Virus record (IMG/VR): IMGVR_UViG_3300009163_000160
Coordinates: 1-25,857 of that record
Length of the DNA: 25,857 nt
Direction: 5' to 3' (one strand)
Source of the DNA: a virus
Part shown: in pieces, positions 3,605-25,857 of the stretch
Layout: each line of letters begins with the position of its first letter
Position numbering within the stretch: the stretch's first letter is position 1
Translations under genes and position numbers: made by a program
Notes under the pieces: generated by a model
Seen by the model: the letters and a program-made list of their open reading frames with translations, nothing else
Databases searched by the model: none
Told to the model about the DNA's origin: nothing

Positions 3605-4729
3605 ATGGCAAGTTGTAGCAACAGTTCAAATATCCAATCGTCATTGACTTCCCTAAGTGTTGTTCAGGGGGGATCGCGACTAGTTACTGACATCACACGA
3701 ATTTCTGGTCTTACAATTGGAAATGTGATTCGTTATGATGTTGCAACTACTGGGTTTACTGCTTCTAAGGCGAATGATGCTCCAAGTTCAGAAGTATTTG
3801 GTGTAATTGAATCTCAGAATGTTTCCACAAATACATTTAGTGTTGTCATATATGGTTCAATTAATCTTGGAGCATCTTATCTCGCAGATATGGGAAGCGG
3901 TGGGGGATCTGGTGGAAATGACATTTACTTCGTAAGTGGAATTACTGCTGGAACTCTTCAAAATCTTGCACCCACAAGTTTGAATCATATAATCAAACCA
4001 GTATATCAAGCAGCACCACATGGATCATTTTCTGGAATTGTAATGAATTATCTTGGATATAAGATAGGTGGAGATATAGAATCTGTTCTTGAAGATACAG
4101 AATTGGGAAATATTCTAATAGTTCTTGGCACAAATGAATTTACAGAAGGTTATGTTGATGCTTCAATTTCACACGAACTTGCAATAGCAGATTATGGCGA
4201 GTTTTATTCTAAATTTGGAACACAATACGGATATGTTGAAAAGATAGTTGTTAATGAAGCTATAGGTGGTACTATACAAGTTGGAATGAAAGCAAGACAA
4301 CCATCATCTGGATATGTGGGAACTATTGTAAGAACAGATAGTGCAAATGCAACTTTATATCTTTATAAATCACCAACTTCAAGTCTAGCAAGCACTTCTA
4401 AAAATTTGATTGTTGATACAAGCAGTAATACAACTCAGACATTCACTATCGTTTCTACAGAGATATATGCTGTACAATCGCCAGTGATTACTTTATCACA
4501 ACCGTTGAATATTAGTGGTAAAGATGGAACAAATGTTGTAACCCAAAAGGTAAATACTGCAATAAAGGTAAAACCCCAGGGAATAAAAGTAAATGTTCCA
4601 AGGTCAGTGACAGTCACATCTTTAACGGCATCTAATATTGCTCTTGGCATTACATGGGCAGATGTTGGAACTACATTAACAAGTTATGATACAAGATTAA
4701 GAGCACTTGAGGCAATAGTTAAACCATAA
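3605..4729 (+). CDS. Tail structural protein sharing a module with the preceding fibre
   Basis: A 374-residue protein with GGAGA at 3595-3599 as ribosome-binding site. Residues about 35-155 repeat the beta-rich module of the upstream fibre: GNVIRYDVATTGFTASKAND, SSEVFGVIES, then NDIYFVSGITAGTL, IIKPVY and GIVMNYLGY. The two genes therefore share a common building block, interrupted here by a GSGGGSGG linker. The middle is beta-rich (VGMKARQPSSGYVGTIVR). The last 16 residues (TSYDTRLRALEAIVKP) look like a short coiled-coil end of the kind that trimerises or docks fibre proteins. Its TAA shares a base with the ATG of the next gene (TAATG at 4727-4731), implying coupled translation and perhaps a shared structure, for example as connector or chaperone for the large collagen-bearing adhesin. 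No enzymatic motif is visible. Confidence 0.55.
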   Translation: MASCSNSSNIQSSLTSLSVVQGGSRLVTDITRISGLTIGNVIRYDVATTGFTASKANDAPSSEVFGVIESQNVSTNTFSVVIYGSINLGASYLADMGSGGGSGGNDIYFVSGITAGTLQNLAPTSLNHIIKPVYQAAPHGSFSGIVMNYLGYKIGGDIESVLEDTELGNILIVLGTNEFTEGYVDASISHELAIADYGEFYSKFGTQYGYVEKIVVNEAIGGTIQVGMKARQPSSGYVGTIVRTDSANATLYLYKSPTSSLASTSKNLIVDTSSNTTQTFTIVSTEIYAVQSPVITLSQPLNISGKDGTNVVTQKVNTAIKVKPQGIKVNVPRSVTVTSLTASNIALGITWADVGTTLTSYDTRLRALEAIVKP

Positions 4730-7700
4730 TGTTTTACGGAAGCAGTCCATATCTTCAACGAAAACTTCTAGGAATTCTTGGAGCAACTGGTGCTACTGGA
4801 GCAACTGGTGCTACTGGCGCAACTGGTGCTACTGGTTCTCAAGGATCAATTGGAAATACTGGTCCTGGTTTAACAGGAATGACTTATTCAAACGGAGCAA
4901 TAATCCACACATATACTGATGGATCAAGCATTAGTGTTGAATCTCCAAATGGAATACAAGGATCTGATGGTGATTATTATATCTTTGCTGATGGTGAGAA
5001 TATTGTAGCAGGAACTCCAGGAATATTTTCTGGATTATCTTTGAATACATCTCTACCTCAAGATAGAGATGGTATCTTCACAATATCAAGATTGAATATT
5101 CGTGGAATAACAACAAGTTCACAAAATAGTAATCTTACATTAATTGGAATTAGTAGTTCTGTAGAATCCAGGATGATAAATGTTCAATATAATTTATCAG
5201 GTCTTCCATATCTTGGATTGTGTGGTGGATCGGAAGGACAACTGGTTGTATTTCAGAGTGGAACCAGATTTGTTGGATTGACTGGCACAAAGTATAATAT
5301 AGATGCAAAAACGGTTGACCTACAATCTCTAAATTATGGAGAAAGAGTTCAATTTGTAAGACCAATACTAAAAACATTATCCTCAACAACAGGAACAGAT
5401 CAAAGGTATTTCTACTGGCCAATAGATTGCCAAAATGCCAATACATTTGTTTTAAATTCGTTTCAAGATCAACTTATAGTTGGAACTAAAACAGTTGCTC
5501 AGGTAGTTTTAATTAAGAATCCACCAACTGCTAATATAGCAAAAGCAATCACTATAGTTGTACCATCAGGAATCACTGGTGGATTGGTAACTAAATTTGC
5601 TGTTGCCGATGATGTATCTGGATTTACACTAAACGATGCCGATTTCTCTGTATCTTGGCCATTGACATATCCTCCATGCTTCACTAGTGGAATAGATGTG
5701 ATAAATTCTGTACATTTTGATGGAATTTGGTATTCTAATTATGGACTATACAATTCAGGAACAAGTTCTGTTTCATGGAATACATCATATAGCGATTGCC
5801 CAGGATCATATAATATACCAGATCCAGACTATCCAGCCTATGATCCAGTTGGTCTTTGCTGTGTTGGTTGTAGTGGTGCATCCGCTTCATTTGTTGGCAC
5901 ACAATCATCTTGTCAATTGTTAATATCTCAAGGATTGGCACAATTCTTTGAAGGAAAAGATGGAACATATAGTGGATGCACATTCAATGATGCTCCTGTT
6001 GGAATTTGTTGTTATAAAAATGGAAATAATTCCACAATCAAACATCCAAATCTACTTAGATTGTGTGATTGTTTAAGACTGTCTAGAAATTCAAATGAAC
6101 AACCATGGTCATATTGGCAACAAATAGATAGTTGTTGCAAGAATATAAATTGTGTAGATTGTGATGCTGCGTTTAACGATACTGGTGCTTGCTGCAATGG
6201 TGTTGGTGGATGTGAAAACAATACATCTCGCGCTTCGTGTGCTGACAGTGGAAAATATTGGCAAGGAAAAGGAACAGTGTGTCAATATTTTCCACCTAAT
6301 CCACCAGATTTTCCTGCACCTATAGAGATCTGTAAAACAGGAACTGCTGGGTGTTGTGTGACAGGAACATGCTCAGATGTTTCTAGACAATCTTCTTGCT
6401 CTGGATTATATTATGGATGTGGTCATACATGCGGATCATTTGATTGCGTGGATAATCCACAAGTTATATGTCCTTCATGTCTTGATTCAAATCAAATATT
6501 CCAAGTTAAAAAATATAATTCTACTGGCAGTTTTATTGGATTTACTGAAGTCAAAATTGGTGATTTCTTTGCAGGTGGAATTGTTGCTGGTGTATTTAGT
6601 CCAAATGGAGCAACATGCTTAGGAAATAGATCTGCATTTGGTGGATTGTATGATGGATTACCTCTTGGTTCTTATACCGATGATGCGCTTAGAAATTCAA
6701 TCACTGGACCATTAGTATTTAATGAATTAAATTCTGGAACTGAAAAAACATCAAGCGCATATAGAAGTGTGTATGATCCAATGGGATATGGATTTACTTT
6801 GCCAGAAGCACATCAATCCAACTGCGATTCATGGTTAATGATTGTTTCTCCGTGGCCTGCTAGAATACGAGAAGATTGGGATATAACTACTCATCAATTC
6901 ACAGCAACACCATTTGTAGATTCTACTGTTTCACCAGATACAAGTATATTGCCAGCTGCAGACTTCGTACTAAATGAAATTGGCGAAAATCTAGTATACT
7001 CCAGAATAATTAATTTATTCACATGGAGTCATGGTGGAACATCACATTGCTTCACACTCGATGATAATTTAAATTCAATTTTTGATGGACAAGTATTATC
7101 TGAATCATGTGCATTCATTGGAACAGGGATTCGATCCGATGGTGCATATGGAACATTGCCTATACTAAAAAATGGAACTATGGGCAATACTTATTGGGGA
7201 AATGCTACAAGTTTTGATACATGTCCAGATGTAAATCTGTGTGTTGATTGTGAAGATTCCCCATTAGCAAGAACTAGTTTAGGAAGACCTTTCATATTTA
7301 CCAGAAATACTGGATGGTGGTCAAGAAATTGGGGTCTATACAATTCTTGTAGATTGTTCGGTTCTGATGTTGCTGAATATTATCTCAGATCTGGAAATGG
7401 TATTGGTGGGCCACAATTTGCCAATCTTAAAACAATATTTGGTGCTACAGGATATGCTGGATTTACAGCAAATTTCTTTCATACAGGAACACCTACAGCA
7501 AAGACAACTATTGCTGAAGGAACTAGCGTATATAACAGATATTATTATTCTTCAGAACAAATGAAATCTGAAGGATATCCACAAGTATCAAGATGGTATG
7601 TTCCCAGCATAGACGAACTTTCATTCTTAGCAAAACAATGCGTAGATATAAATCTTCAAGAAAAACTATACAATTATGGAATAACTTATGGAATTCCTAT

Positions 7701-8211
7701 TGGAAGTTCTTCCATAGGAGCAAATGGATATGTTTGGTCATCTACTGGAACATTTGATGAAGGTGTCACACGACAATACATTCAAGCAACTGGTGGATCG
7801 CCATGGCCAAATTCTGGAGAAAATGGATCAGAGGTAATATTACCATCCGATTCAAGATATGGGCAGATATTAACAAACCAATTTACCAAGGCGTGGGTAT
7901 TGAAATTTCCAGAACATGATATTGACACACAATTACCACCATCTCCAAATTCGTTTAAAGTTAAAAAAGCACACGACTTTGACGATAAATATGAATTGAG
8001 ATTGGTAAGACTTATTCGTTGTGATCAAAGATATTATGATAATAATTCACCTGAATTTTTAAGAAATAGAACATGGATGGTTCCCAGACTAACTGATGCT
8101 GCGGTATGCAATGGAACAAATCAAGAGATAGATGGAATCAATCCGCAGTACAGTTCTGCCAATTTTACTCTAGATCCACAGACATCCACTATATTCAGAA
8201 ACGCAACATAA
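4729..8211 (+). CDS. Giant tail adhesin: collagen repeat, Cys-rich modules, DUF1566/Lcl-like end
   Basis: A 1160-residue protein. After the start MFYGSSPYLQRKLLGIL come collagen-like Gly-X-Y triplets (GATGATG type, about residues 18-49), expected to form a triple helix. A beta-rich shaft follows (about 55-370). Residues about 375-581 are Cys-rich, with modules beginning GLCC, GICC, GACC and GCC. From about residue 600, GDFFAGGIVAGVFSP and later SWLMIVSP, RWYVPSIDELSFL (about 954) and YVWSSTGTF (about 1002) match the pattern of DUF1566/Lcl C-terminal domains ('GGIV', 'WRLPT.EEL', 'YWSST'), which I infer to be C-type-lectin-like. It ends 'LRLVRLIRC' plus a short tail. Role: trimeric receptor-binding fibre or spike (inference). 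It starts in TAATG overlap with its predecessor and is followed one base later by a paralogue. Confidence 0.75.
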   Translation: MFYGSSPYLQRKLLGILGATGATGATGATGATGATGSQGSIGNTGPGLTGMTYSNGAIIHTYTDGSSISVESPNGIQGSDGDYYIFADGENIVAGTPGIFSGLSLNTSLPQDRDGIFTISRLNIRGITTSSQNSNLTLIGISSSVESRMINVQYNLSGLPYLGLCGGSEGQLVVFQSGTRFVGLTGTKYNIDAKTVDLQSLNYGERVQFVRPILKTLSSTTGTDQRYFYWPIDCQNANTFVLNSFQDQLIVGTKTVAQVVLIKNPPTANIAKAITIVVPSGITGGLVTKFAVADDVSGFTLNDADFSVSWPLTYPPCFTSGIDVINSVHFDGIWYSNYGLYNSGTSSVSWNTSYSDCPGSYNIPDPDYPAYDPVGLCCVGCSGASASFVGTQSSCQLLISQGLAQFFEGKDGTYSGCTFNDAPVGICCYKNGNNSTIKHPNLLRLCDCLRLSRNSNEQPWSYWQQIDSCCKNINCVDCDAAFNDTGACCNGVGGCENNTSRASCADSGKYWQGKGTVCQYFPPNPPDFPAPIEICKTGTAGCCVTGTCSDVSRQSSCSGLYYGCGHTCGSFDCVDNPQVICPSCLDSNQIFQVKKYNSTGSFIGFTEVKIGDFFAGGIVAGVFSPNGATCLGNRSAFGGLYDGLPLGSYTDDALRNSITGPLVFNELNSGTEKTSSAYRSVYDPMGYGFTLPEAHQSNCDSWLMIVSPWPARIREDWDITTHQFTATPFVDSTVSPDTSILPAADFVLNEIGENLVYSRIINLFTWSHGGTSHCFTLDDNLNSIFDGQVLSESCAFIGTGIRSDGAYGTLPILKNGTMGNTYWGNATSFDTCPDVNLCVDCEDSPLARTSLGRPFIFTRNTGWWSRNWGLYNSCRLFGSDVAEYYLRSGNGIGGPQFANLKTIFGATGYAGFTANFFHTGTPTAKTTIAEGTSVYNRYYYSSEQMKSEGYPQVSRWYVPSIDELSFLAKQCVDINLQEKLYNYGITYGIPIGSSSIGANGYVWSSTGTFDEGVTRQYIQATGGSPWPNSGENGSEVILPSDSRYGQILTNQFTKAWVLKFPEHDIDTQLPPSPNSFKVKKAHDFDDKYELRLVRLIRCDQRYYDNNSPEFLRNRTWMVPRLTDAAVCNGTNQEIDGINPQYSSANFTLDPQTSTIFRNAT
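4780..4833 (+). repeat. Three 18-bp repeats encoding GATGAT collagen triplets
   Basis: Three tandem copies of an 18-bp unit (first unit GGAGCAACTGGTGCTACT; the third differs by GGC for GGA) encode Gly-Ala-Thr triplets. The near-identity of the DNA, not only the protein, suggests recent slippage or recombination, so the collagen length may vary between relatives. Confidence 0.9.
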
Positions 8212-8212
8212 T

Positions 8213-11200
8213 ATGATTTACGGGTCATCCAGAATTGTACAAGTAGTATCGGGAAATGTTCCAGGGGCAACTCAAGGACCAACTGGTCCTACTGGGTTTA
8301 CTGGTCCTACTGGTCCTACAGGGTCAACTGGGTCTACTGGAGTTCAAGGACCAATTGGTGCGGGAATTACTGGAGCAACTGCGATAGGTTCCAATGTTGT
8401 ATTCTTTGGTAATGGACTCTCATTCTCATTTTTCGCCAGAGGAAATACTGGAGTTTCAACGGGAGATGAATATTATAAAGTGAACGGTTTAGGTGTCAAT
8501 ACCGAAAACAAATCAACAAACATAATATACACATCTCAAGAAGATTATTATCCAGCAAATAATGATATTGTTAATTTTAAATCATTTAGACTATCTGGTG
8601 GACTTGGTGCGACATTTGTTGGAATGAGTGCGGATGCTGGAACTGTATTTTTGTTTGGAGCAACGGTTTCAGATTCTCAGATACCATTTGGAAATACAGG
8701 AGAAATTCTGTATATAAACAGCAATGCTGGATTTGGAACAGGAACACTAAAAGCAGCTGCTGCTCCAAATACAAGTTTCACTCCAAGCACCCAACAATTA
8801 ATAATTGATCAAGTATTTTCAAGAGAATCTATATTTAAAAATAAAAACTGGTCAACAATTGGAACTATTCCATTTAGATTCAACAATAGTATTCCATTTT
8901 CATATTATGGTGGATTGACTACTGATACATTTGGTAAATCTGTTGTAGAAAATAATATTTTACCAAAATTTATATTTGAAGTTGGTTCCAGATATAAACT
9001 CGCAAGTCCAGTTGATAGTATCTCGCTTGGTCAGAAAATATTCTTAGGATTTACCAGTGGATCTACATTTGATACAATCACTTTCATTAATTCCACAGGA
9101 ATATCATACACCAATACATATCTTCCACAAAATGTGACTAGAGATAAAATAGGATCTTGTTGTTACTGTAAGACGAATGTGACAGGTCAGGTTTGTTTAG
9201 ATTATGTTTCTCAAGATTATTGCAATGCTATTTCTGGTGTATTTGGAGCAAGTGCTTGTGTTGAGAGATCCACAAGTTCAGATTGCTATTCTGAAGGTGC
9301 TTGTTGTGTATATGATCCAGAAACAGAAAGCGTTCGTTGCCTCAACACAACCGCTGCGCGATGTGAACAGTTTGGTGGAGTATTCAATGAAGCAAAGACA
9401 TGTAGTTCTGTATGGGTAAATGGGCAATTATTCACATGTCCAACAAATTTATGTAATAGTGGTGGAGCACAAATAGGAAAATGCTGTGTTAATGGAAGAT
9501 GTTACAATCTATCTAGCGGAGATTGTGCGTCTATTGCAGGATCTGTATTTGTTGCTGGACAATTATGCACATCTGAAGAAGGTGATTCTGTTTGTTGTTC
9601 TGTAAGTTATGATCTAAAGGGTGCTTGCTGCACGGGTAGCAATTGTATAGATGATGTTCTGCCTCAAAATTGCAATGGAATCTATCAAGGTGCTGGAACA
9701 AAATGTAAAGAAGTCAATTGCTGCGGGTATTCATTCTCCGATGATTATTTCAAGGGAGCATCTGGAACTAAAAATGCATGTAAAGCATTAGGAGCAGATC
9801 AAATTTATTCGTGTCTTCAACCAGGAGATAAACTTGGTGGTGGATATTTTGTAGGATTCGTAGGTATGCCAAATCCTTGCGATTCATTCCTTTCGCCATC
9901 CTTGGCATTTGGTGAACCACTTGAATGTATGATCTATCCAAGAGGTAGATTGGAAAATGTTCCAAGTTGGTATCTCAAGACATGCAAGGGAATAACAGGA
10001 AATGATAATACAGGATCTATTGAATACTTTGCACGAACATATCCAAAGATTCTTCCAAAGAATGCATTGGATTCTCGCTGTATGCTCAAGGCAGGAGCAC
10101 CATTTGTTCAACAAGCATATGCATTGAATGGAGTTGTTTGGCCATCAGAATTGATGTTTGAGGGTGGAACAAATTATTCCGCAAATCGTGGAGCATTCTC
10201 GTATTCATTAGTTGGTTCAGGTCTAGCAGTAGAATACTTAGATCAGAATAATGAAACATTATACAAATATCTCTCACAAAGAGTCTATGGAGAATCAGAT
10301 ATTCATATTCTTTGGGCATTGATAATTGGACCAGAGGATGTTGAAGTTTCTACAACACCAAATGGAACAGATGGTGGATCTAGACTTCTCAGTTGGGGAA
10401 TGATGCAAGGAGCACATAAACCTGGAGTGACTGGTGTTCCATTGGATATAGTGCTGGAAGAAATTCCAACCTATCCAGTAGATGGATTACTCAATACAAG
10501 AATTCACGATTCGTCTTCAAAGAATAAACCAGAATATTGGTTCAGAGGAACTGGAACTACAGATGCAAAAGCATATATGCGCTTCTCATTTGGAAATGGT
10601 CCAGCATGGACATCAAGTGTTAGAGAATCTCAAATTACAACAAACATAAATTCATTTAAAGAAGCATATACTGAAATGTGGAATAATAAAAATCCACTAT
10701 CCTCTGCTATAAGACAAATTTCTAATATAAATGAATCTGGTCTTTATGGACATAATGATTGGTACATTCCTAGCATCATTGAATTGAACTACATCTACAA
10801 TAATCTTCCACAACTAAATGCCGCATTTGCGGTCAATGGCGATCAACTATTGTCGGGAAGCGAATATTGGAGCTCAACAAGTGTTACTCGTCTCAAGAGT
10901 TGGAGTCCTTTTGTTCCTCTTGATAAAGATCAATATGTTTTAGAAAATATTGATCCCCAAATAGAACCATATCTTTCTGACAATAGGTTAACAAGTAATA
11001 ATATTAATTTCTTCGCCAATGAAGATGAAGCATATAAATTCACAATGGCAGTTGCTAATGGACAGAAAATGCTCACGCAGGTATTTGATGGCAATTCTAC
11101 TACTGAAGGTATGATCAAATCCCAAAATAGAAATGCTAGAGTTGCTAATCTAAGACCAGTTAGACGAATTCCTTTAGTGGTTACTTGTAATAATTTCTAC

Positions 11201-11290
11201 TATAGTGCATCTATTCTAAATAATTATTGGTCATCAGGATCTACAGGATGTGCGTCTTGTCTTGACATTGTAGAAGGAATGTGTACATGA
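8213..11290 (+). CDS. Giant tail adhesin paralogue with collagen, Cys-rich and DUF1566/Lcl-like domains
   Basis: A 1025-residue paralogue of the upstream adhesin, starting one base after its stop. The start MIYGSS echoes MFYGSS of the neighbour. Residues about 18-50 are collagen-like (GPTGPTG, GSTGSTG, GPIG). A beta-rich shaft follows to about 310. Residues about 315-505 hold four Cys-rich modules, the clearest being GKCCVNGRC and GACCTGSNC with their following Cys. The C-terminal DUF1566/Lcl-like domain runs from about 535: LQPGDKLGGGYFVGF, LWALIIGP, NDWYIPSIIELNYIYNNL (about 848), YWSSTS (about 884) and LRPVRRI (about 981). It closes with a short Cys-containing tail. I infer a trimeric host-recognition protein with a disulfide- or metal-stabilised stalk. 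Which surface it binds is not visible. Its TGA overlaps the next start (ATGA). Confidence 0.75.
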   Translation: MIYGSSRIVQVVSGNVPGATQGPTGPTGFTGPTGPTGSTGSTGVQGPIGAGITGATAIGSNVVFFGNGLSFSFFARGNTGVSTGDEYYKVNGLGVNTENKSTNIIYTSQEDYYPANNDIVNFKSFRLSGGLGATFVGMSADAGTVFLFGATVSDSQIPFGNTGEILYINSNAGFGTGTLKAAAAPNTSFTPSTQQLIIDQVFSRESIFKNKNWSTIGTIPFRFNNSIPFSYYGGLTTDTFGKSVVENNILPKFIFEVGSRYKLASPVDSISLGQKIFLGFTSGSTFDTITFINSTGISYTNTYLPQNVTRDKIGSCCYCKTNVTGQVCLDYVSQDYCNAISGVFGASACVERSTSSDCYSEGACCVYDPETESVRCLNTTAARCEQFGGVFNEAKTCSSVWVNGQLFTCPTNLCNSGGAQIGKCCVNGRCYNLSSGDCASIAGSVFVAGQLCTSEEGDSVCCSVSYDLKGACCTGSNCIDDVLPQNCNGIYQGAGTKCKEVNCCGYSFSDDYFKGASGTKNACKALGADQIYSCLQPGDKLGGGYFVGFVGMPNPCDSFLSPSLAFGEPLECMIYPRGRLENVPSWYLKTCKGITGNDNTGSIEYFARTYPKILPKNALDSRCMLKAGAPFVQQAYALNGVVWPSELMFEGGTNYSANRGAFSYSLVGSGLAVEYLDQNNETLYKYLSQRVYGESDIHILWALIIGPEDVEVSTTPNGTDGGSRLLSWGMMQGAHKPGVTGVPLDIVLEEIPTYPVDGLLNTRIHDSSSKNKPEYWFRGTGTTDAKAYMRFSFGNGPAWTSSVRESQITTNINSFKEAYTEMWNNKNPLSSAIRQISNINESGLYGHNDWYIPSIIELNYIYNNLPQLNAAFAVNGDQLLSGSEYWSSTSVTRLKSWSPFVPLDKDQYVLENIDPQIEPYLSDNRLTSNNINFFANEDEAYKFTMAVANGQKMLTQVFDGNSTTEGMIKSQNRNARVANLRPVRRIPLVVTCNNFYYSASILNNYWSSGSTGCASCLDIVEGMCT
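8276..8362 (+). repeat. Collagen-like Gly-X-Y repeat (GPTGPTG/GSTGSTG)
   Basis: About ten consecutive Gly-X-Y triplets, mostly Gly-Pro-Thr and Gly-Ser-Thr, encoded by related 9-bp units such as GGTCCTACT. The codons are partly degenerate, so this run is older or less homogenised than the one at 4780. Confidence 0.85.
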
Positions 11291-14004
11291 GTAATAGTCC
11301 AATAACTAATATAATATCTGTAGGAAAAACTGGATCAGTAGGACCAGTTGGTTCTACTGGTGCTACTGGTAATAGAGGAAATACTGGTAATGGTGGTATT
11401 ACTGGAGAACGAGGAATACACTTTTTAAGTTCTCGCGGATTTGCGAACGGAATAACATTAACATTCTCTGATTTAAGTACAATTGCTGTAAATGGGGCTT
11501 TCAGAGGAACAACATTTATTGATAAGACTTCTGGATTAGTTCAAGGATCAAATACAGCATCAAGTTCCTTCCTTACACAATATGGATTATTTTCCGCTGT
11601 AAATGGTGGAACATTTCAATTTAAAGGATTGTGTGCTTATGGTTCACTAAGAGCATCTTTAACTGGACCAGCAAATGAATATATTTCCATTGATACGATC
11701 TATTGGGGTAAAGATCTTATAGGAAATTATGATGCTGGTACAATGACTCCTGGAAGATTAACATTTCTAGGAACTCCAACAGTAGTTAATGGTTCTGGAA
11801 TCACACATACTCAATTAAATAGCGATAATATTAGTTTTGGTCATACTGGTACATTTAATTTTCAAAACACATTTTTTAGTTCTGGAACATCAGATGATAC
11901 AAGTTACAACTTAAATGCTGGAGCAAAAGTATCTACTATTGGACCAATTCGTAAAGGAGCATTTTCAGGATTAACTGGAAATAATCCAATTGGTGGAGTT
12001 GGGACCACGCAGGGAATATACATTGACGCAAATTCTGCTGGCGCATTCATTCTTCATACACCAATTGGAATACGAGGAATCAGCGGAAATTTCAATTCAA
12101 ATGAAGTTGATTCAATAACACTAGTAATTGATTCTGATGATGTGTGGAAATTTCCAGAAAATATTTACTTTGAACCAGATGAAAACTATCTTTCTTGTGG
12201 TAAGAATATAATTGGACTCATGACATATGATGGTGGTGAAACCTGGTTGGCAACTGTATCGCATCGTGGTCATGGTGTGGCAGATGTAAACAGAGCATGT
12301 ATTCCAGGATATTTATTTGGTTCTTGCTGTTATAATAATCCAGATGGTACTCTTGAATGTTTGGATTATACTTCTCGTTCAACATGTGATAAATTATTTG
12401 GAAATTTTAGTCCAGCGAAGTCGTGTGAAGATTCATGTGGTGGCGAAAACGGAATTTGTTGCTCAAATGGTAAATGTTTAGGTGAAATTACTGTTGCTTT
12501 ATGTGATCAATTTGGTGGTCAGTATTGGAGTGGACTCAATTGTACAGACTACACTGGAAATTTGAATTACCCAATTGGCGAACTAAGTTCAGATCAACTA
12601 AAAGAGCAAGGAAGTTTTTGTTATAATAACTGTAATGATACTCCAGTTGTTTGCTGTAAGGATGGTCAATGTTTAGGAAACTATACAAGAGTTCAATGTG
12701 AATTGATTCTTGGTGGTAGATCATTGACCGCTGCGTCTTGCTCTGAAGCAGATTGCTGCGATTATGGGACAATTAAGGGTGCTTGTTGTAAATGTAATTC
12801 TGTTAATGGAATTATACAATACGAATGTATACCCGATTTATCTCCATCAGCTTGTAAATCTCTTGGTGGGTCTTTCATGGGTCCAGGAAAACAATGCAAT
12901 GAGGTAAGTTGTGGTTGTGTTTGTGGACCAATTGGACCCTCTGGACCATCTGGACCCTCTGGACCATCTGGACCCTCTGGACCTAATGACGCTATTGGAA
13001 TTTGTTGCAAAAATGGAACATGCCTACCAAATATTGGAAGCAAAGCAGAATGTTCTGCCGCATGTGGAAATTGGTTAGATAAAATTTATTATGATCAACA
13101 AGTACCCACCCCAGGTAGTTATCAGTTTGGATCAGACCCAAACGACTGTGAATTCTGTGCGTTACACCGACCTGTTATGGTTTTATCGCAATTTTTAATC
13201 CCTGGCGATTGCAGTCCTTTTATTCAATTTCTAAGATTTTCTATGTCTATTGGCGATAGCAGTTGTGCAGTGTACCCCGAGTTAGATTTATTCATCGCTG
13301 ACCCTGGTGACCAAAGACCTCCAATAACTACTATTAATACACCTAGTGATGATCTTAATATGACAGGTGCTAACATAGCCTTGATTTCTGATCTATTCTT
13401 CAACATATATGGTGTTACAATTCCCTTAAGGTCGGCAGTAGGTGTAAGACAACAACTAATTGATTTAATGTCTTGTCCTCTCTCAACTGAAAATTTAGAG
13501 ATTATAATTGAACTTGGAGATAGAATGTTGAAGGCCTGGCTCGAAGCTGAGTGGATTATAAATGGATGGACTCCTTGCTCACAGAAGTGTTGTACATGTG
13601 AGGGTGAGAACCCTACGGCGCCTGGTTTACCTTTTTGTCTACCAATTGGTGACGACCGAATGACTGTTCGCAACCTTTGTCAATACAGAGACATATGTCT
13701 TGATCTAGGGATTGCCAATGACGCGATGGGTAATCCAGGTTGTCAGTGCGGTGGTCCTGAGAATACTGGAGATTCACCTTGTGGAAAGCCAATTGCTGAA
13801 AGACTGAATTGTCCTTCATTGGACCACCCTGATTCTGAATATTGTAATTGGTCCGAAATCAATACTTGTCAGTGTTCAAATTCAGGTCTTACTGATGATC
13901 TAATTAAGAGTGTAAAGATGTATCTAAATAGTACAGATTATGTTTGTGTTCCTGTTTCATATACAGATTTCTCAGGTTACGAACTCTGCGACGGGGAATC
14001 CTAA
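11287..14004 (+). CDS. Giant tail adhesin with two collagen segments and a distinct Cys-rich C-terminus
   Basis: I place the start at the ATG at 11287, which overlaps the upstream TGA (ATGA) and has AGAAGGA eight bases before it; a GTG at 11281 in frame lacks this spacing. The product is about 905 residues. Residues about 13-43 are collagen-like (VGSTGATGNRGNTG), followed by a beta-rich shaft. Residues about 345-592 carry five Cys-rich modules (GSCC, GICC, VVCC, GACC, GICC). A second collagen stretch of GPSGPSG triplets (about 547-566) is inserted between the fourth and fifth. Unlike its paralogues it has no WYxPS/WSST domain. Residues about 600-905 form an unrecognised Cys-rich module (PLSTENLEIIIELGDRMLK, then CCTCEGE, CQCGGPE, CQCSNSG). 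That module uses CCT/CCC and GGT/GGC far more than the CCA/GGA-rich upstream part, suggesting domain swapping. Confidence 0.7.
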   Translation: MSNSPITNIISVGKTGSVGPVGSTGATGNRGNTGNGGITGERGIHFLSSRGFANGITLTFSDLSTIAVNGAFRGTTFIDKTSGLVQGSNTASSSFLTQYGLFSAVNGGTFQFKGLCAYGSLRASLTGPANEYISIDTIYWGKDLIGNYDAGTMTPGRLTFLGTPTVVNGSGITHTQLNSDNISFGHTGTFNFQNTFFSSGTSDDTSYNLNAGAKVSTIGPIRKGAFSGLTGNNPIGGVGTTQGIYIDANSAGAFILHTPIGIRGISGNFNSNEVDSITLVIDSDDVWKFPENIYFEPDENYLSCGKNIIGLMTYDGGETWLATVSHRGHGVADVNRACIPGYLFGSCCYNNPDGTLECLDYTSRSTCDKLFGNFSPAKSCEDSCGGENGICCSNGKCLGEITVALCDQFGGQYWSGLNCTDYTGNLNYPIGELSSDQLKEQGSFCYNNCNDTPVVCCKDGQCLGNYTRVQCELILGGRSLTAASCSEADCCDYGTIKGACCKCNSVNGIIQYECIPDLSPSACKSLGGSFMGPGKQCNEVSCGCVCGPIGPSGPSGPSGPSGPSGPNDAIGICCKNGTCLPNIGSKAECSAACGNWLDKIYYDQQVPTPGSYQFGSDPNDCEFCALHRPVMVLSQFLIPGDCSPFIQFLRFSMSIGDSSCAVYPELDLFIADPGDQRPPITTINTPSDDLNMTGANIALISDLFFNIYGVTIPLRSAVGVRQQLIDLMSCPLSTENLEIIIELGDRMLKAWLEAEWIINGWTPCSQKCCTCEGENPTAPGLPFCLPIGDDRMTVRNLCQYRDICLDLGIANDAMGNPGCQCGGPENTGDSPCGKPIAERLNCPSLDHPDSEYCNWSEINTCQCSNSGLTDDLIKSVKMYLNSTDYVCVPVSYTDFSGYELCDGES
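11329..11415 (+). repeat. Collagen-like Gly-X-Y repeat near adhesin N-terminus
   Basis: Gly-X-Y triplets (GSVGPVGSTGATGNRGNTG, then GNGGITGERG) follow the short N-terminal segment, at the same relative place as in the two upstream adhesins. The DNA is diverged, with no long identical units. Confidence 0.75.
12925..12984 (+). repeat. Internal GPSGPSG collagen repeat in near-identical 18-bp units
   Basis: Alternating 9-bp units GGACCCTCT and GGACCATCT encode Gly-Pro-Ser triplets in the middle of the Cys-rich region, bracketed by VCGPIG and GPNDAIGICC. The 18-bp period is nearly perfect, pointing to recent expansion independent of the N-terminal collagen. Confidence 0.9.
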
Positions 14005-22693: not shown

Positions 22694-24262
22694 ATGGCAT
22701 TTGATATTTTTGGTTTTTCTTTTGGCAGAAAAGATGAGGGATTATTCCCAGATGGTGGGTTGACGGGTTCATCTCCGTCAACCCTATCTTTTACTGCACC
22801 TGAAAATTATGATGGAACGCAAGTACTTGAAACAGGTGGATTTATGTCCTCTGTTTATGACTTTGGCGGTTCTTTCATAGATGAAAATTCTTTGGTACGG
22901 CAATACCGTGGTATGTCGCTTTATCCAGAAGTTGATATGGCAATTGAAGATATAGTAACTCAAGCAATAACTTATGATAAGCAAAACATATCACTTAGAT
23001 TAGATTTGAACAATACTGAATTGTCTGATAATATTAAATCCAAGATTAATTTAGAATTTATCAATATTTTGAAACTGTTAGATTTTAAGAACAGAGGATA
23101 TGATATTTTTAGAAGATGGTATGTGGATGGACGAGTATATTTTCAAAATATTATTGATATGGAACATCCAGAAAAAGGCATCCTTGAACTTAGAGCAATA
23201 GATCCTATAAAGATCAGAAAAATCAGAAAAGTTCAAAAGGAAATAAAAAGAGTAAACAATACTACTGTTCCTATTGTTAAGAAAGTGGAAGAATATTTTG
23301 TATATACTGATTTTGAAATGAGTTCTGTAGCAACTTCAGCAACATCAAATGTTGGTGTTAAGATTGAAGTTGATGCAATCACATACGCACATTCAGGATT
23401 GGTTGACCAGACCTCTAAGAGAATCGTAGGATTCTTACACAAGGCAATTCGTCCATTGAACATGCTTCGTCAGACCGAAGATGCGATGGTCGTATATCGC
23501 CTCGCTCGCGCTCCAGAGCGTAGAGTGTTTTATATTGATGTAGGAAATCTGCCTAAACAAAAGGCAGAAGAATACATTAAGACTCTGATGACTCGCTATC
23601 GTAATAAACTTACATACGATTCTGCTACAGGAGACATCAAGGATCAAAAAAACCATATGTCAATGTTAGAAGACTATTGGTTGCCTCGTAGAGAAGGTGG
23701 TAAGGGAACTGAGATTCAGACTCTTCCAGGTGGACAAAATCTTGGAGCAATGGAAGATGTTGAATATCTTCTGCGTAAGGTATACCGAGCACTCAATGTT
23801 CCACTGACCCGAATGGAAGTTCAAAGCGGATTCAATCTTGGTCGCAGCAGCGAAATCACAAGAGATGAAGTTAAATTCTATAAGTTCATAGAGCGTCTTC
23901 AGAATAAATTTAGCAATATGTTCATAGACATTCTCAAGAAGCAATGTATTCTTCGTGGAATTCTAACTCCAGAAGATTGGAAGAATATATATCAAGATAT
24001 CAACATAGTTTATAGCAAGGATTCATATTTTACCGAACTCAAGGAAAATGAAATTCTTAATGAACGAGTTAATATGTTGAATGTCCTTGGAAATTATAAT
24101 GGCATGTTCTTCTCAACGAATTATATTAGAAGAAACATTCTAAAGCAGACAGATGAAGAAATAGCAAAAATGGATATAGAAATTGAACAGGATAGACAAA
24201 AGCAGTTACAACAACAACTACAAATGCAGCAAATGGGTCTGGACCCACAGCAAGAAAAATAA
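22694..24262 (+). CDS. gp20: Portal vertex protein gp20
   Basis: A 522-residue protein, essentially the T4 length (524). Recognisable portal segments include YRGMSLYPEVDMAIEDIV (residues about 69-86), RRWYVDGRVYFQNIID (about 141-156), LRAIDPIKIRKIRKV, AIRPLNMLRQTEDAMVVYRL (about 252-271), APERRVFYIDVGNLPKQKAE and then the wing/stem region with YRNKLTYDSATGDIKDQKNH and MLEDYWLPRREGGKGTEI. Next come QSGFNLGRSSEITRDEVKFY and a Gln-rich C-terminus. The dodecameric portal nucleates the prohead, docks the gp17 motor and later binds gp13/gp14. A stretch near 23450-23560 is visibly richer in G+C than its surroundings, as expected of a strongly conserved core gene. Confidence 0.97.
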   Translation: MAFDIFGFSFGRKDEGLFPDGGLTGSSPSTLSFTAPENYDGTQVLETGGFMSSVYDFGGSFIDENSLVRQYRGMSLYPEVDMAIEDIVTQAITYDKQNISLRLDLNNTELSDNIKSKINLEFINILKLLDFKNRGYDIFRRWYVDGRVYFQNIIDMEHPEKGILELRAIDPIKIRKIRKVQKEIKRVNNTTVPIVKKVEEYFVYTDFEMSSVATSATSNVGVKIEVDAITYAHSGLVDQTSKRIVGFLHKAIRPLNMLRQTEDAMVVYRLARAPERRVFYIDVGNLPKQKAEEYIKTLMTRYRNKLTYDSATGDIKDQKNHMSMLEDYWLPRREGGKGTEIQTLPGGQNLGAMEDVEYLLRKVYRALNVPLTRMEVQSGFNLGRSSEITRDEVKFYKFIERLQNKFSNMFIDILKKQCILRGILTPEDWKNIYQDINIVYSKDSYFTELKENEILNERVNMLNVLGNYNGMFFSTNYIRRNILKQTDEEIAKMDIEIEQDRQKQLQQQLQMQQMGLDPQQEK

Positions 24263-24288: not shown

Positions 24289-24813
24289 ATGTCAAATAGC
24301 AAACAAATTATAGAATCACTTTTTGCCGACGATCTATACACAGCAAAAAAAGCAATCACCGAAGTACTCACTAGTAAAATGGCACAAGCATTAGAAGAAA
24401 AATTAATTGATTTTGCGCCAGAAGTTTTCAATGAAAGCTCAAAACCAGATTTCCTTGATCTTGATAGAGATGGAAATAAAACAGAACCCATGAGAAAAGC
24501 AGCCAGGGATAAAAAGAAAGTGGGTAAAAGAGTCAATATGAAAGAAGATATTGAAGATCTTGCTGAAGATTTTGAAAATCAACTTAAGTCATTAGTTGAA
24601 GAAATTGAAGAAGAAACTGGTGAACAATTATCTGAAGAAGAAATTATTGATATTGCTAATATGCTTATTGATATGATCGCTGAAGATCATGTTGATGGTG
24701 ACGAAGATCACGACGATGATGAAGACGATGACGACGATGATGATGACGAAGACAATGACGAAGACCAACCAACTGCAACCAATTATCGTCTTGGGACTAA
24801 TTCCGAGTATTGA
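24289..24813 (+). CDS. Acidic prohead core protein, gp67-like
   Basis: A 174-residue protein with a good AGGAGA ribosome-binding site, placed between portal and protease where T4 encodes core proteins gp67 and gp68. Its N-terminus (QIIESLFADDLYTAKKAITE, then VLTSKMAQALEEKLIDFAP) parallels T4 gp67 ('LIEAIKSNDLVAARKLFAEAM'). Like gp67 it ends in an extremely acidic tract, here an almost unbroken Asp/Glu/His run at residues about 137-161, followed by QPTATNYRLGTNSEY. At 174 residues it is twice gp67 (80) and includes a central helical section (EEIEEETGEQLSEEEIIDIA), so it could combine roles of gp67 and gp68. gp67 is part of the scaffold core and is cut by gp21 during maturation. The assignment rests on position, N-terminal pattern and acidity. 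Confidence 0.65.
   Translation: MSNSKQIIESLFADDLYTAKKAITEVLTSKMAQALEEKLIDFAPEVFNESSKPDFLDLDRDGNKTEPMRKAARDKKKVGKRVNMKEDIEDLAEDFENQLKSLVEEIEEETGEQLSEEEIIDIANMLIDMIAEDHVDGDEDHDDDEDDDDDDDDEDNDEDQPTATNYRLGTNSEY
24694..24770 (+). repeat. GAC/GAT-rich microsatellite encoding poly-acidic tract
   Basis: A run of GAC, GAT and GAA codons encodes the acidic tail of the gp67-like protein. Mixed Asp codons show that it is not a pure slippage product, but length variation between relatives is likely. Confidence 0.8.
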
Positions 24814-24832: not shown

Positions 24833-25477
24833 ATGAAACTAATCACAGAAACCGTAGAAGATGTAGAATCCATCGTTGAATCCAACGAAGCGGGTGCTAA
24901 GACATATAAGATTCGTGGGGTCATGATGGAAAGTGATACCCAAAATAGAAATGGTCGTATCTATGAAAATAGAATATTAATCAAAGAAACTAGACGATAT
25001 GTTATAGAATATGTAAATAAAAATAGAGCAATGGGTGAATTAAATCATCCATCTGGTCCAACTGTCAATCTTGATCGCGTTTCCCACATGATTGAATCCC
25101 TTAAGGAAAATGGAAAACAGATAATCGGGGAAGCAAAGATTATTGATACTCCAATGGGAAATATTGTTAAGAATCTAATTGATGCTGGTGCTAAACTAGG
25201 GGTATCTTCTAGAGGCATGGGAAGTTTGGAAAAACGCAATGGTGTAAATTATGTTAAGGAAGACTTTACTCTCGCAGCAATAGATATTGTTGCGGATCCA
25301 TCAGCACCAAATGCGTTTGTAGATGGCATTCTTGAGGGTAAGGAATGGATCTGGAACAATGGAATTTTAATTGAATCTGATATTGCCCATTACGAAAAAC
25401 AATTAAAAAGAACATCAAATCGTAAACTAGAAGAAACTGCTATAAACTTATTTTCTGATTTTCTGAGAAGAATATGA
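24833..25477 (+). CDS. gp21: Prohead core protease gp21
   Basis: A 214-residue protein (T4 gp21 is 212). The family pattern is complete: YKIRGVMMESDTQNRNGRIY (residues about 25-44), AMGELNHPSGPTVNLDRVSH with the catalytic His at 72, GNIVKNLIDAG, KLGVSSRGMGSL with the catalytic Ser at 125/126, and FTLAAIDIVADPSAPNAFVD, which supplies the acidic member (probably D151). It is a herpes-type serine protease that becomes active inside the prohead, cleaves scaffold, core and capsid proteins after (I/L)-x-Glu, and digests itself. The upstream ribosome-binding site is weak (AGAAAGA). Its TGA overlaps the start of the repeat-protein gene (ATGA), linking the two in expression. Confidence 0.96.
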   Translation: MKLITETVEDVESIVESNEAGAKTYKIRGVMMESDTQNRNGRIYENRILIKETRRYVIEYVNKNRAMGELNHPSGPTVNLDRVSHMIESLKENGKQIIGEAKIIDTPMGNIVKNLIDAGAKLGVSSRGMGSLEKRNGVNYVKEDFTLAAIDIVADPSAPNAFVDGILEGKEWIWNNGILIESDIAHYEKQLKRTSNRKLEETAINLFSDFLRRI

Positions 25478-25857
25478 ATAATAATAAAAAACTATTATCG
25501 GAAGAAGCAATATCTGCAATAAGATCTAGAATTCCTACTATGTCAAAGGACATTCATGAAGGAATAGTCAGTGATATTGCGGGTCTTGCCAGAGTTGCAG
25601 GAAGTGCAGTCGCAGCAGGTGCTAGAGTTGGAGCAGATGCGCTTGCTAGAGGTACTGGAACTGTAGCAGACGCTGCATTGAGAGGCACTAGAACTGTAGC
25701 AGACGCTGCATTAAGAGGTACTGCGGTTGGAGCAGCTGCGGTTGGTAGAGGCACTAGAACTGTAGCAGACGCTGCATTAAGAGGTACTGCGGTTGGAGCA
25801 GCTGCGGTTGGTAGAGGCACTAGAACTGTAGCAGACGCTGCATTAAGAGGCACTAGG
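25474..25857 (+). CDS. Ala/Gly/Arg-rich 11-residue-repeat protein, possible internal head protein (3' truncated)
   Basis: The ATG at 25474 overlaps the gp21 stop (ATGA) and the frame stays open for 128 codons to the window edge, so the gene is incomplete. An N-terminal segment (MNNNKKLLSEEAISAIRSRI) leads to DIHEG at residues 26-30. I-H-E followed by Gly fits the gp21 cleavage rule, (I/L)-x-Glu then a small residue. From residue 39 the protein is built from 11-residue units, best seen as TRTVADAALRG alternating with TAVGAAAVGRG, eight complete units before the edge. Most units carry Arg-Gly at positions 10-11 and are net basic. T4 would have scaffold gp22 here, but I see no resemblance to it. 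I infer an internal head protein with a removable targeting peptide, perhaps DNA- or membrane-interacting. A scaffold variant is the main alternative. Confidence 0.6.
   Translation, partial: MNNNKKLLSEEAISAIRSRIPTMSKDIHEGIVSDIAGLARVAGSAVAAGARVGADALARGTGTVADAALRGTRTVADAALRGTAVGAAAVGRGTRTVADAALRGTAVGAAAVGRGTRTVADAALRGTR
25588..25857 (+). repeat. 33-bp (11-codon) tandem repeats with a 66-bp higher-order unit
   Basis: Eight 33-bp units are in frame, the first two diverged. From 25654 the DNA is highly similar. The 66-bp block at 25720-25785 is repeated at 25786-25851 with a single third-position difference at its last base, showing recent duplication of a two-unit block. The array runs on past the window edge. 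Confidence 0.93.

What the first reader, a model, noticed from the sequence alone, without database searches (positions are those of the whole stretch)
25474..25857. Eleven-residue-repeat protein after the protease, with a gp21-type cleavage site
The gene directly after gp21, where gp22 is expected, encodes alternating TRTVADAALRG and TAVGAAAVGRG units following IHE-Gly at residues 27-30. T4 internal proteins IPI-IPIII are packaged through a short N-terminal signal that gp21 removes at such sites. An 11-residue period is typical of long amphipathic or membrane-associated helices, and the units are net basic. This may be an undescribed internal protein ejected with DNA, a DNA condenser or a membrane-active factor.
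Basis: partly seen in the sequence, partly recalled or inferred. Interest (0 to 1): 0.75.

Follow-up and report, generated by a model that had tools for sequence, protein, structure and literature searches.

The report
Phage internal head protein with repeats
A T4-like phage of uncultured bacteria makes, from the gene right after its head protease, a basic repeat-bearing protein that is probably carried inside the virus head after its first 29 residues are cut off; its relatives nearly always have a different protein in the same spot with the same kind of cutting tag, which points to a dedicated, fast-changing cargo position.

Summary
ORF 25474-25857 starts on the gp21 stop (ATGA overlap), has IHE-Gly at residues 27-30 and near-perfect 11/22-residue repeats. 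The window stops inside the repeats. Identical contigs hold the full gene: 307 aa, with a well-predicted all-helical C-terminal domain. It is not gp22: gp22 and gp23 follow as the next two genes. The gene is an extra one between 21 and 22. In 109 non-redundant relatives, 88 have a gene here, and those 88 lie together on the gp21 tree. It is nearly always translationally coupled to gp21 and diverges extremely fast: 29% identity in one pair whose gp23 is 100% identical. Of 67 diverged representatives, 66 carry [IL]xE (the gp21 site) at residues 6-35 (shuffles 17+-3). The remainder is depleted in that site (0.56x), while scaffold gp22 is enriched (2.3x). Nearly all are basic, none acidic. Best reading: propeptide-targeted, gp21-cleaved proteins retained in the head, working like T4 IPs/Alt but with no detectable homology to IPII or IPIII. 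The repeats are a lineage-specific insert. Membrane activity is not supported; ejection and function are inferred. No cultured phage record holds a detectable relative of the five slot proteins searched.

The parts
25474..25857 (+). Internal-protein-like gene (5' 128 codons; full length 307 aa in L001, L002, L003)
25474..25477 (+). ATGA overlap of this start codon with the gp21 stop (translational coupling); such coupling is seen in 88 of the 89 genes examined at this position
25474..25560 (+). Predicted propeptide / capsid-targeting region, residues 1-29 (alternative shorter site LSE at residue 10, 25474-25503)
   Evidence: motif conserved across the family, cleavage itself not shown
25552..25563 (+). 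Predicted gp21 cleavage site IHE|G (residues 27-30)
   Evidence: L/I-X-E rule from PMC9026906
25588..25857 (+). 11-residue repeat region (degenerate from residue 39, near-perfect 22-residue/66-bp units from residue 61); predicted amphipathic helix, low model confidence
24833..25477 (+). gp21 prohead protease (Peptidase_S77, PF03420 E=5e-32), the presumed processing enzyme
24289..24813 (+). Acidic gp67-like prohead core protein (8 [IL]xE sites, charge -38), context
22694..24262 (+). gp20 portal protein, context
   Evidence: phrog_213, E=1e-190

Best explanation
The gene encodes an internal head protein that works like T4 IPI-IPIII/Alt. It is made together with the gp21 protease from an overlapping start codon. 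Its first 29 residues (or 10) direct it into the prohead core. gp21 then cuts after the [IL]xE motif (IHE|G), and the basic mature protein of about 278 aa (an 11-residue-repeat helical arm plus an all-helical C-terminal domain) stays in the head with the DNA. It is probably ejected into the host, where it or its relatives act on a fast-changing host target; a role in DNA arrangement or capsid assembly is the alternative. The position between genes 21 and 22 is a fixed but hypervariable slot in a large clade of uncultured T4-like phages. Shown: gene structure, slot, coupling, motif enrichment, site depletion across the slot families, basic charge, divergence. Inferred: targeting, cleavage, retention. 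Speculative: ejection and the host-directed role.
For: Slot gene in 88 of 109 non-redundant gp21+gp22 loci (minus the HTVC008M split gp22); those loci lie together on the gp21 tree with no loss seen. 88/89 genes examined start -4 to +8 nt from the gp21 stop. [IL]xE at residues 6-35 in 66/67 representatives under 50% identity, shuffles 17.4+-3.4 (z=14.3); of ten variant motifs only [IL]..E clearly exceeds background, partly (35/67, z=5.4); portals 7%. Mature parts depleted in [IL]xE (0.56x, z=-4.9) while most control motifs are not, and gp22 is 2.3x enriched; this protein has 3 sites against 14 in its gp22. 95% of mature parts pI>8, none <6. Slot identity about 23% when gp21 is 80-85% identical; L053/L068: gp23 100%, slot 29%. 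T4 IPIII has exactly one site, at its annotated propeptide end MKTYQEFIAE. T-even internal proteins are described as highly diverse with only a conserved CTS (PMC3012670).
Against: No virion proteomics for this clade was found. In the window's own family alone, depletion of internal sites is weak (21 against 26.6+-4.4), and the window protein keeps one internal site (ILE-196). gp23 is depleted in other motifs too, so it is only a rough reference. The propeptide is not clearly more conserved than the rest in moderately diverged pairs. Unlike T4 IPs (described as dispensable and not highly conserved among relatives), this gene is never lost within the clade and sits in the head operon, which fits a structural duty as well as cargo. 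Ejection is untested.
Confidence: 0.72

Rival explanations
1. It is a prohead core (scaffold-type) protein like T4 gp68/gp67/gp22: it shapes the core and is then chopped up by gp21 and lost.
For: Lies in the head operon next to gp21, always present in the clade, and T4 gp68 is also basic (+9) and next to gp21.
Against: Core proteins are rich in sites (T4 gp68 5 in 141 aa, gp22 16 in 269 aa; clade gp22 2.3x enriched) whereas slot proteins have 0.33 per 100 aa, 0.56x of expectation. No profile similarity to T4 gp22, gp67 or gp68. The phage already has a gp67-like protein and a gp22.
Confidence: 0.13
2. It is a retained structural or DNA-arranging head protein (capsid-lining like P1 DarA/Hdf, or a DNA condenser) that is not ejected or does not act in the host. 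This shares targeting, cleavage and retention with the best explanation and differs only in the final function.
For: Basic throughout the slot families, never lost within the clade, fixed coupling to gp21; P1 DarA-Hdf pairs line the head interior and contact DNA (PMC12810830). An L029-type slot protein has a sub-threshold DarA_N hit (E=0.07), not significant.
Against: Extreme sequence turnover beside near-identical gp23 is unusual for a protein fitted to a conserved capsid; no homology to known lining proteins.
Confidence: 0.22
3. It is a membrane-active ejection or pilot factor whose Ala/Gly/Val 11-residue helix inserts into the host membrane.
For: Amphipathic 11/3 helix with a narrow charged stripe (moment 0.47 at 98 degrees, shuffle 95% 0.29); first PDB structural match is colicin Ia, not significant (E=0.9).
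Against: Maximum 19-residue hydropathy 1.34 in the window protein, and no excess over shuffles in any slot cluster; the repeat is absent from other family members, so it is not the conserved function.
Confidence: 0.05
4. It is gp22 itself, or a detached piece of gp22.
For: Position directly after gp21; in HTVC008M a split gp22 N-terminus really does occupy this place.
Against: A complete gp22 follows; no profile similarity between slot clusters and gp22 or gp22 N-termini; opposite charge (+19 against -22).
Confidence: 0.01

Closest known systems
T4 internal proteins IPI, IPII, IPIII and Alt (capsid-targeting-sequence class)
   Same: Short N-terminal segment ending in [IL]xE, basic mature protein, few internal sites, sequence variable between phages apart from the tag.
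   Different: No sequence similarity to IPII or IPIII (IPI and Alt not compared); longer 29-residue propeptide with two candidate sites; encoded in the head operon and coupled to gp21; never lost in its clade, whereas T4 IP genes are described as dispensable and not highly conserved.
T4 prohead core proteins gp67, gp68, gp22
   Same: Same operon; gp68 is basic and adjacent to gene 21.
   Different: Many [IL]xE sites in gp22 and gp68 (degraded core); no detectable similarity; the clade's own gp22 and a gp67-like protein are present separately.
P1 DarA/Hdf internal head proteins
   Same: Head-internal, DNA-contacting, linked to anti-restriction and head assembly (PMC12810830).
   Different: No significant sequence or fold match; only a sub-threshold DarA_N hit in a different slot cluster.
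11-residue (11/3) amphipathic repeat helices (LEA proteins, apolipoproteins, synucleins; from general knowledge)
   Same: 11-residue period and amphipathic helix signal.
   Different: Composition is Ala/Gly/Val/Arg with a narrow charged face; occurs only as a recent insert in one lineage; no database match.

Membership tests
T4-type internal proteins (CTS class) | N-terminal propeptide ending in the gp21 site L/I-X-E | tested here: met
   IHE-29|G (and LSE-10) by sequence; 66/67 slot representatives against 17 by shuffle; actual cutting not shown
T4-type internal proteins (CTS class) | Mature part largely free of gp21 sites (retained, not degraded) | tested here: met
   Slot families together 0.56x expectation, z=-4.9; in the window's own family only a weak trend (21 vs 26.6+-4.4) with one internal site at 196
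T4-type internal proteins (CTS class) | Basic mature protein | tested here: met
   pI 11.5, charge +18 after residue 10
T4-type internal proteins (CTS class) | Sequence homology to IPII or IPIII | tested here: not met
   hhalign of T4 IPIII and IPII against slot clusters: nothing significant
T4-type internal proteins (CTS class) | Presence in virion, cleaved N-terminus, ejection into host | not testable with these tools
   needs mass spectrometry of an isolate or heterologous packaging
gp22 scaffold (PF25623 / phrog_237) | Profile match | tested here: not met
   No match for the slot protein; the next gene matches at 6e-60 and 3e-69
Prohead core gp67/gp68 | Similarity and many gp21 sites | tested here: not met
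Membrane-active ejection protein | Hydrophobic membrane segment | tested here: not met
   Hydropathy not above shuffle in any cluster; maximum 1.34 in the window protein

The most novel reading that the evidence does not exclude
A whole clade of uncultured aquatic T4-like phages keeps one dedicated, protease-coupled position for ejected effector or anti-defence proteins that change almost completely between close relatives, so that position and propeptide alone would allow unknown injected phage proteins to be read off metagenomes.
Probability: 0.35. Interest if true: 0.8.

Novelty: new variant of a known kind. Interest (0 to 1): 0.6.

Why it matters
If right, gene order plus a tagged N-terminus identifies internal head proteins in phages that cannot be cultured, although the proteins have no database relatives. 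It extends the T4 internal-protein concept, known from T-even phages, to a large unrecognised clade, and shows that such proteins can be fixed in the head operon and coupled to the protease rather than scattered accessory genes. It offers many natural propeptide/cargo pairs for testing what packages and cleaves a protein in a T4-type head.

Tried and rejected
Database identification: no Pfam, PHROG or INPHARED tblastn match for the full protein, nor tblastn matches for members of four other slot clusters. Fold comparison of the full model and of the confident C-terminal domain gave nothing significant. gp22 or a gp22 fragment: rejected. HTVC008M gp089, first counted as a slot gene, proved to be a split gp22 N-terminus and was removed. 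Homology between slot clusters: only a marginal cluster 1/2 match (hhalign E=4e-4, probability 35%); the rest are too diverged or unrelated. Transmembrane segment idea: no excess over shuffles. Propeptide more conserved than the rest: not clearly so. Alignment-based collection search failed for lack of conserved columns. psbA, as a sign of a cyanobacterial host: absent from the five records tested, all possibly incomplete. Promoter/terminator scan uninformative.

Full report
OBSERVATION. It starts at 25474, its ATG overlapping the gp21 stop as ATGA, and is open at the window end. Residues 27-30 are I-H-E-G. The DNA repeat has a 66-bp period with 99% match, i.e. recent duplication; protein self-identity peaks at lags 11 and 22. 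The window is a whole virus record of 25,857 bases that ends inside the repeat. L004, identical over its 4,979 bases to L002, starts in the repeat and overlaps the window end by exactly 176 bp, so the truncation looks like an assembly break. L001, L002 and L003 carry the same 307-aa protein.

ANATOMY. Residues 1-29: predicted propeptide with two [IL]xE sites (LSE-10, IHE-29). Residues about 39-158: eleven-residue units; residues 30-165 are 28% Ala, 18% Gly, 13% Val, 13% Arg, net +13. The hydrophobic moment peaks at 98 degrees, the angle of an 11/3 helix (0.47; shuffle 95% 0.29). AlphaFold predicts helices here with low confidence. Residues about 175-290 are predicted mostly with high confidence as an all-helical domain (repeated on the domain alone with 22 aligned sequences, mean pLDDT 88.8). 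No structural relative was found.

CONTEXT. Order in L002: portal, acidic gp67-like protein, gp21, this gene, gp22 (PF25623, 6e-60), gp23 (PF07068, 7e-134). T4 has nothing between 21 and 22, nor do Pelagibacter phage Mosig, Methylophilales phage Melnitz-2 and phage C48C1.

RELATED LOCI. From gp21-seeded scans plus reference records, 110 non-redundant loci hold gp21 and gp22. 21 have gp22 directly after gp21; 89 have a gene of 116-759 aa between. One of these (HTVC008M gp089) is a split gp22 N-terminus, leaving 88. On a gp21 tree these 88 fall in two neighbouring supported groups, apart from all loci without the gene, and families of slot proteins follow the tree with 11 changes, the minimum possible. 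The simplest reading is one origin, vertical descent and no loss; the deepest forks there are only moderately supported, so two origins are not excluded. 88 of the 89 genes start within -4 to +8 nt of the gp21 stop.

DIVERGENCE. When gp21 is 80-85% identical, gp22 is 59% and the slot protein 23%, near the shuffled baseline of 21%. L053 and L068 have 100% identical gp23, 86% gp22 and 29% slot protein. The window protein's own family (22 members) shares, in most members, the N-terminal IPxxxxxIxE region and a C-terminal domain; the long repeat is this lineage's own.

TEST OF THE CLEAVAGE TAG. T4 gp21 cuts after L/I-X-E; IP propeptides are 10-19 residues; core proteins are cut many times (PMC9026906). 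Among 67 slot representatives below 50% identity, 66 carry [IL]xE ending at residue 6-35, against 17.4+-3.4 in shuffles. Ten variant motifs serve as controls: nine lie within about 2.3 SD of background, and [IL]..E is raised (35/67, z=5.4), presumably because leucine or isoleucine also often sits at -3. Beyond residue 40 the same motif is depleted (52 against 93.5+-8.4, 0.56x); most controls are at or above expectation, with [IL]..E also low (0.71x). gp22 is 2.3x enriched. This pattern, one tag in front and few sites behind, is that of retained cargo, not of a degraded core. For the window's own family alone the depletion is only a trend (21 against 26.6+-4.4). As a positive control, T4 IPIII has a single site at the end of its annotated propeptide.

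CHARGE. 95% of mature slot proteins have pI above 8 and none below 6, as described for the basic T4 IPs; gp22 and the gp67-like protein of this phage are acidic.

MECHANISM. Made with gp21, targeted to the core by the N-terminus, cut at IHE|G, retained with the DNA and probably ejected. Targeting, cleavage and retention are inferred from sequence statistics; ejection and host action rest on analogy with T4. A purely structural role is the main rival, favoured by the fixed position and lack of loss.

MEMBERSHIP. It works like a T4 internal protein but shows no homology to IPII or IPIII; T4 IPI and Alt were not compared. It is not gp22, gp67 or gp68.

LIMITS. Everything rests on metagenomic contigs. 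The collections searched hold no isolate with a detectable relative of the slot proteins tried, and the host is unknown. Repeat copy number in short-read assemblies may be understated, although several contigs agree.

Noticed in passing
window 4729-8211, 8213-11290, 11281-14004: Three large consecutive proteins begin with collagen-like Gly-X-Y stretches, are Cys-rich, and one has an Lcl_C-type domain (E=3e-7, just below the Pfam cut-off): probably collagen-stalked fibre or adhesin proteins.
   Followed up: partly
window 24289-24813: gp67-like core protein with a long Asp/Glu run near its end, like T4 gp67, with 8 [IL]xE sites.
   Followed up: partly
L087:5712-6062 (HTVC008M I899_gp089): Annotated as hypothetical, but it appears to be the gp22 N-terminal region split off as its own gene (hhalign E=3e-6, probability 88%).
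   Followed up: partly
L218 (NYSS01000205.1): A contig binned as a Planctomycetota MAG carries a T4-like gp21/gp22 head module; probably a phage contig in the bin.
   Followed up: no
L029:6649-8580 and related 640-760 aa slot proteins: Very large slot proteins with no Pfam match; one has a sub-threshold DarA_N hit (E=0.07). Worth a structure prediction of their own.
   Followed up: no
L053/L068, L101/L104, L182/L179: Close relatives whose gp22 is 85-96% identical but whose slot proteins share only 29-49%, good pairs for selection or recombination analysis.
   Followed up: no
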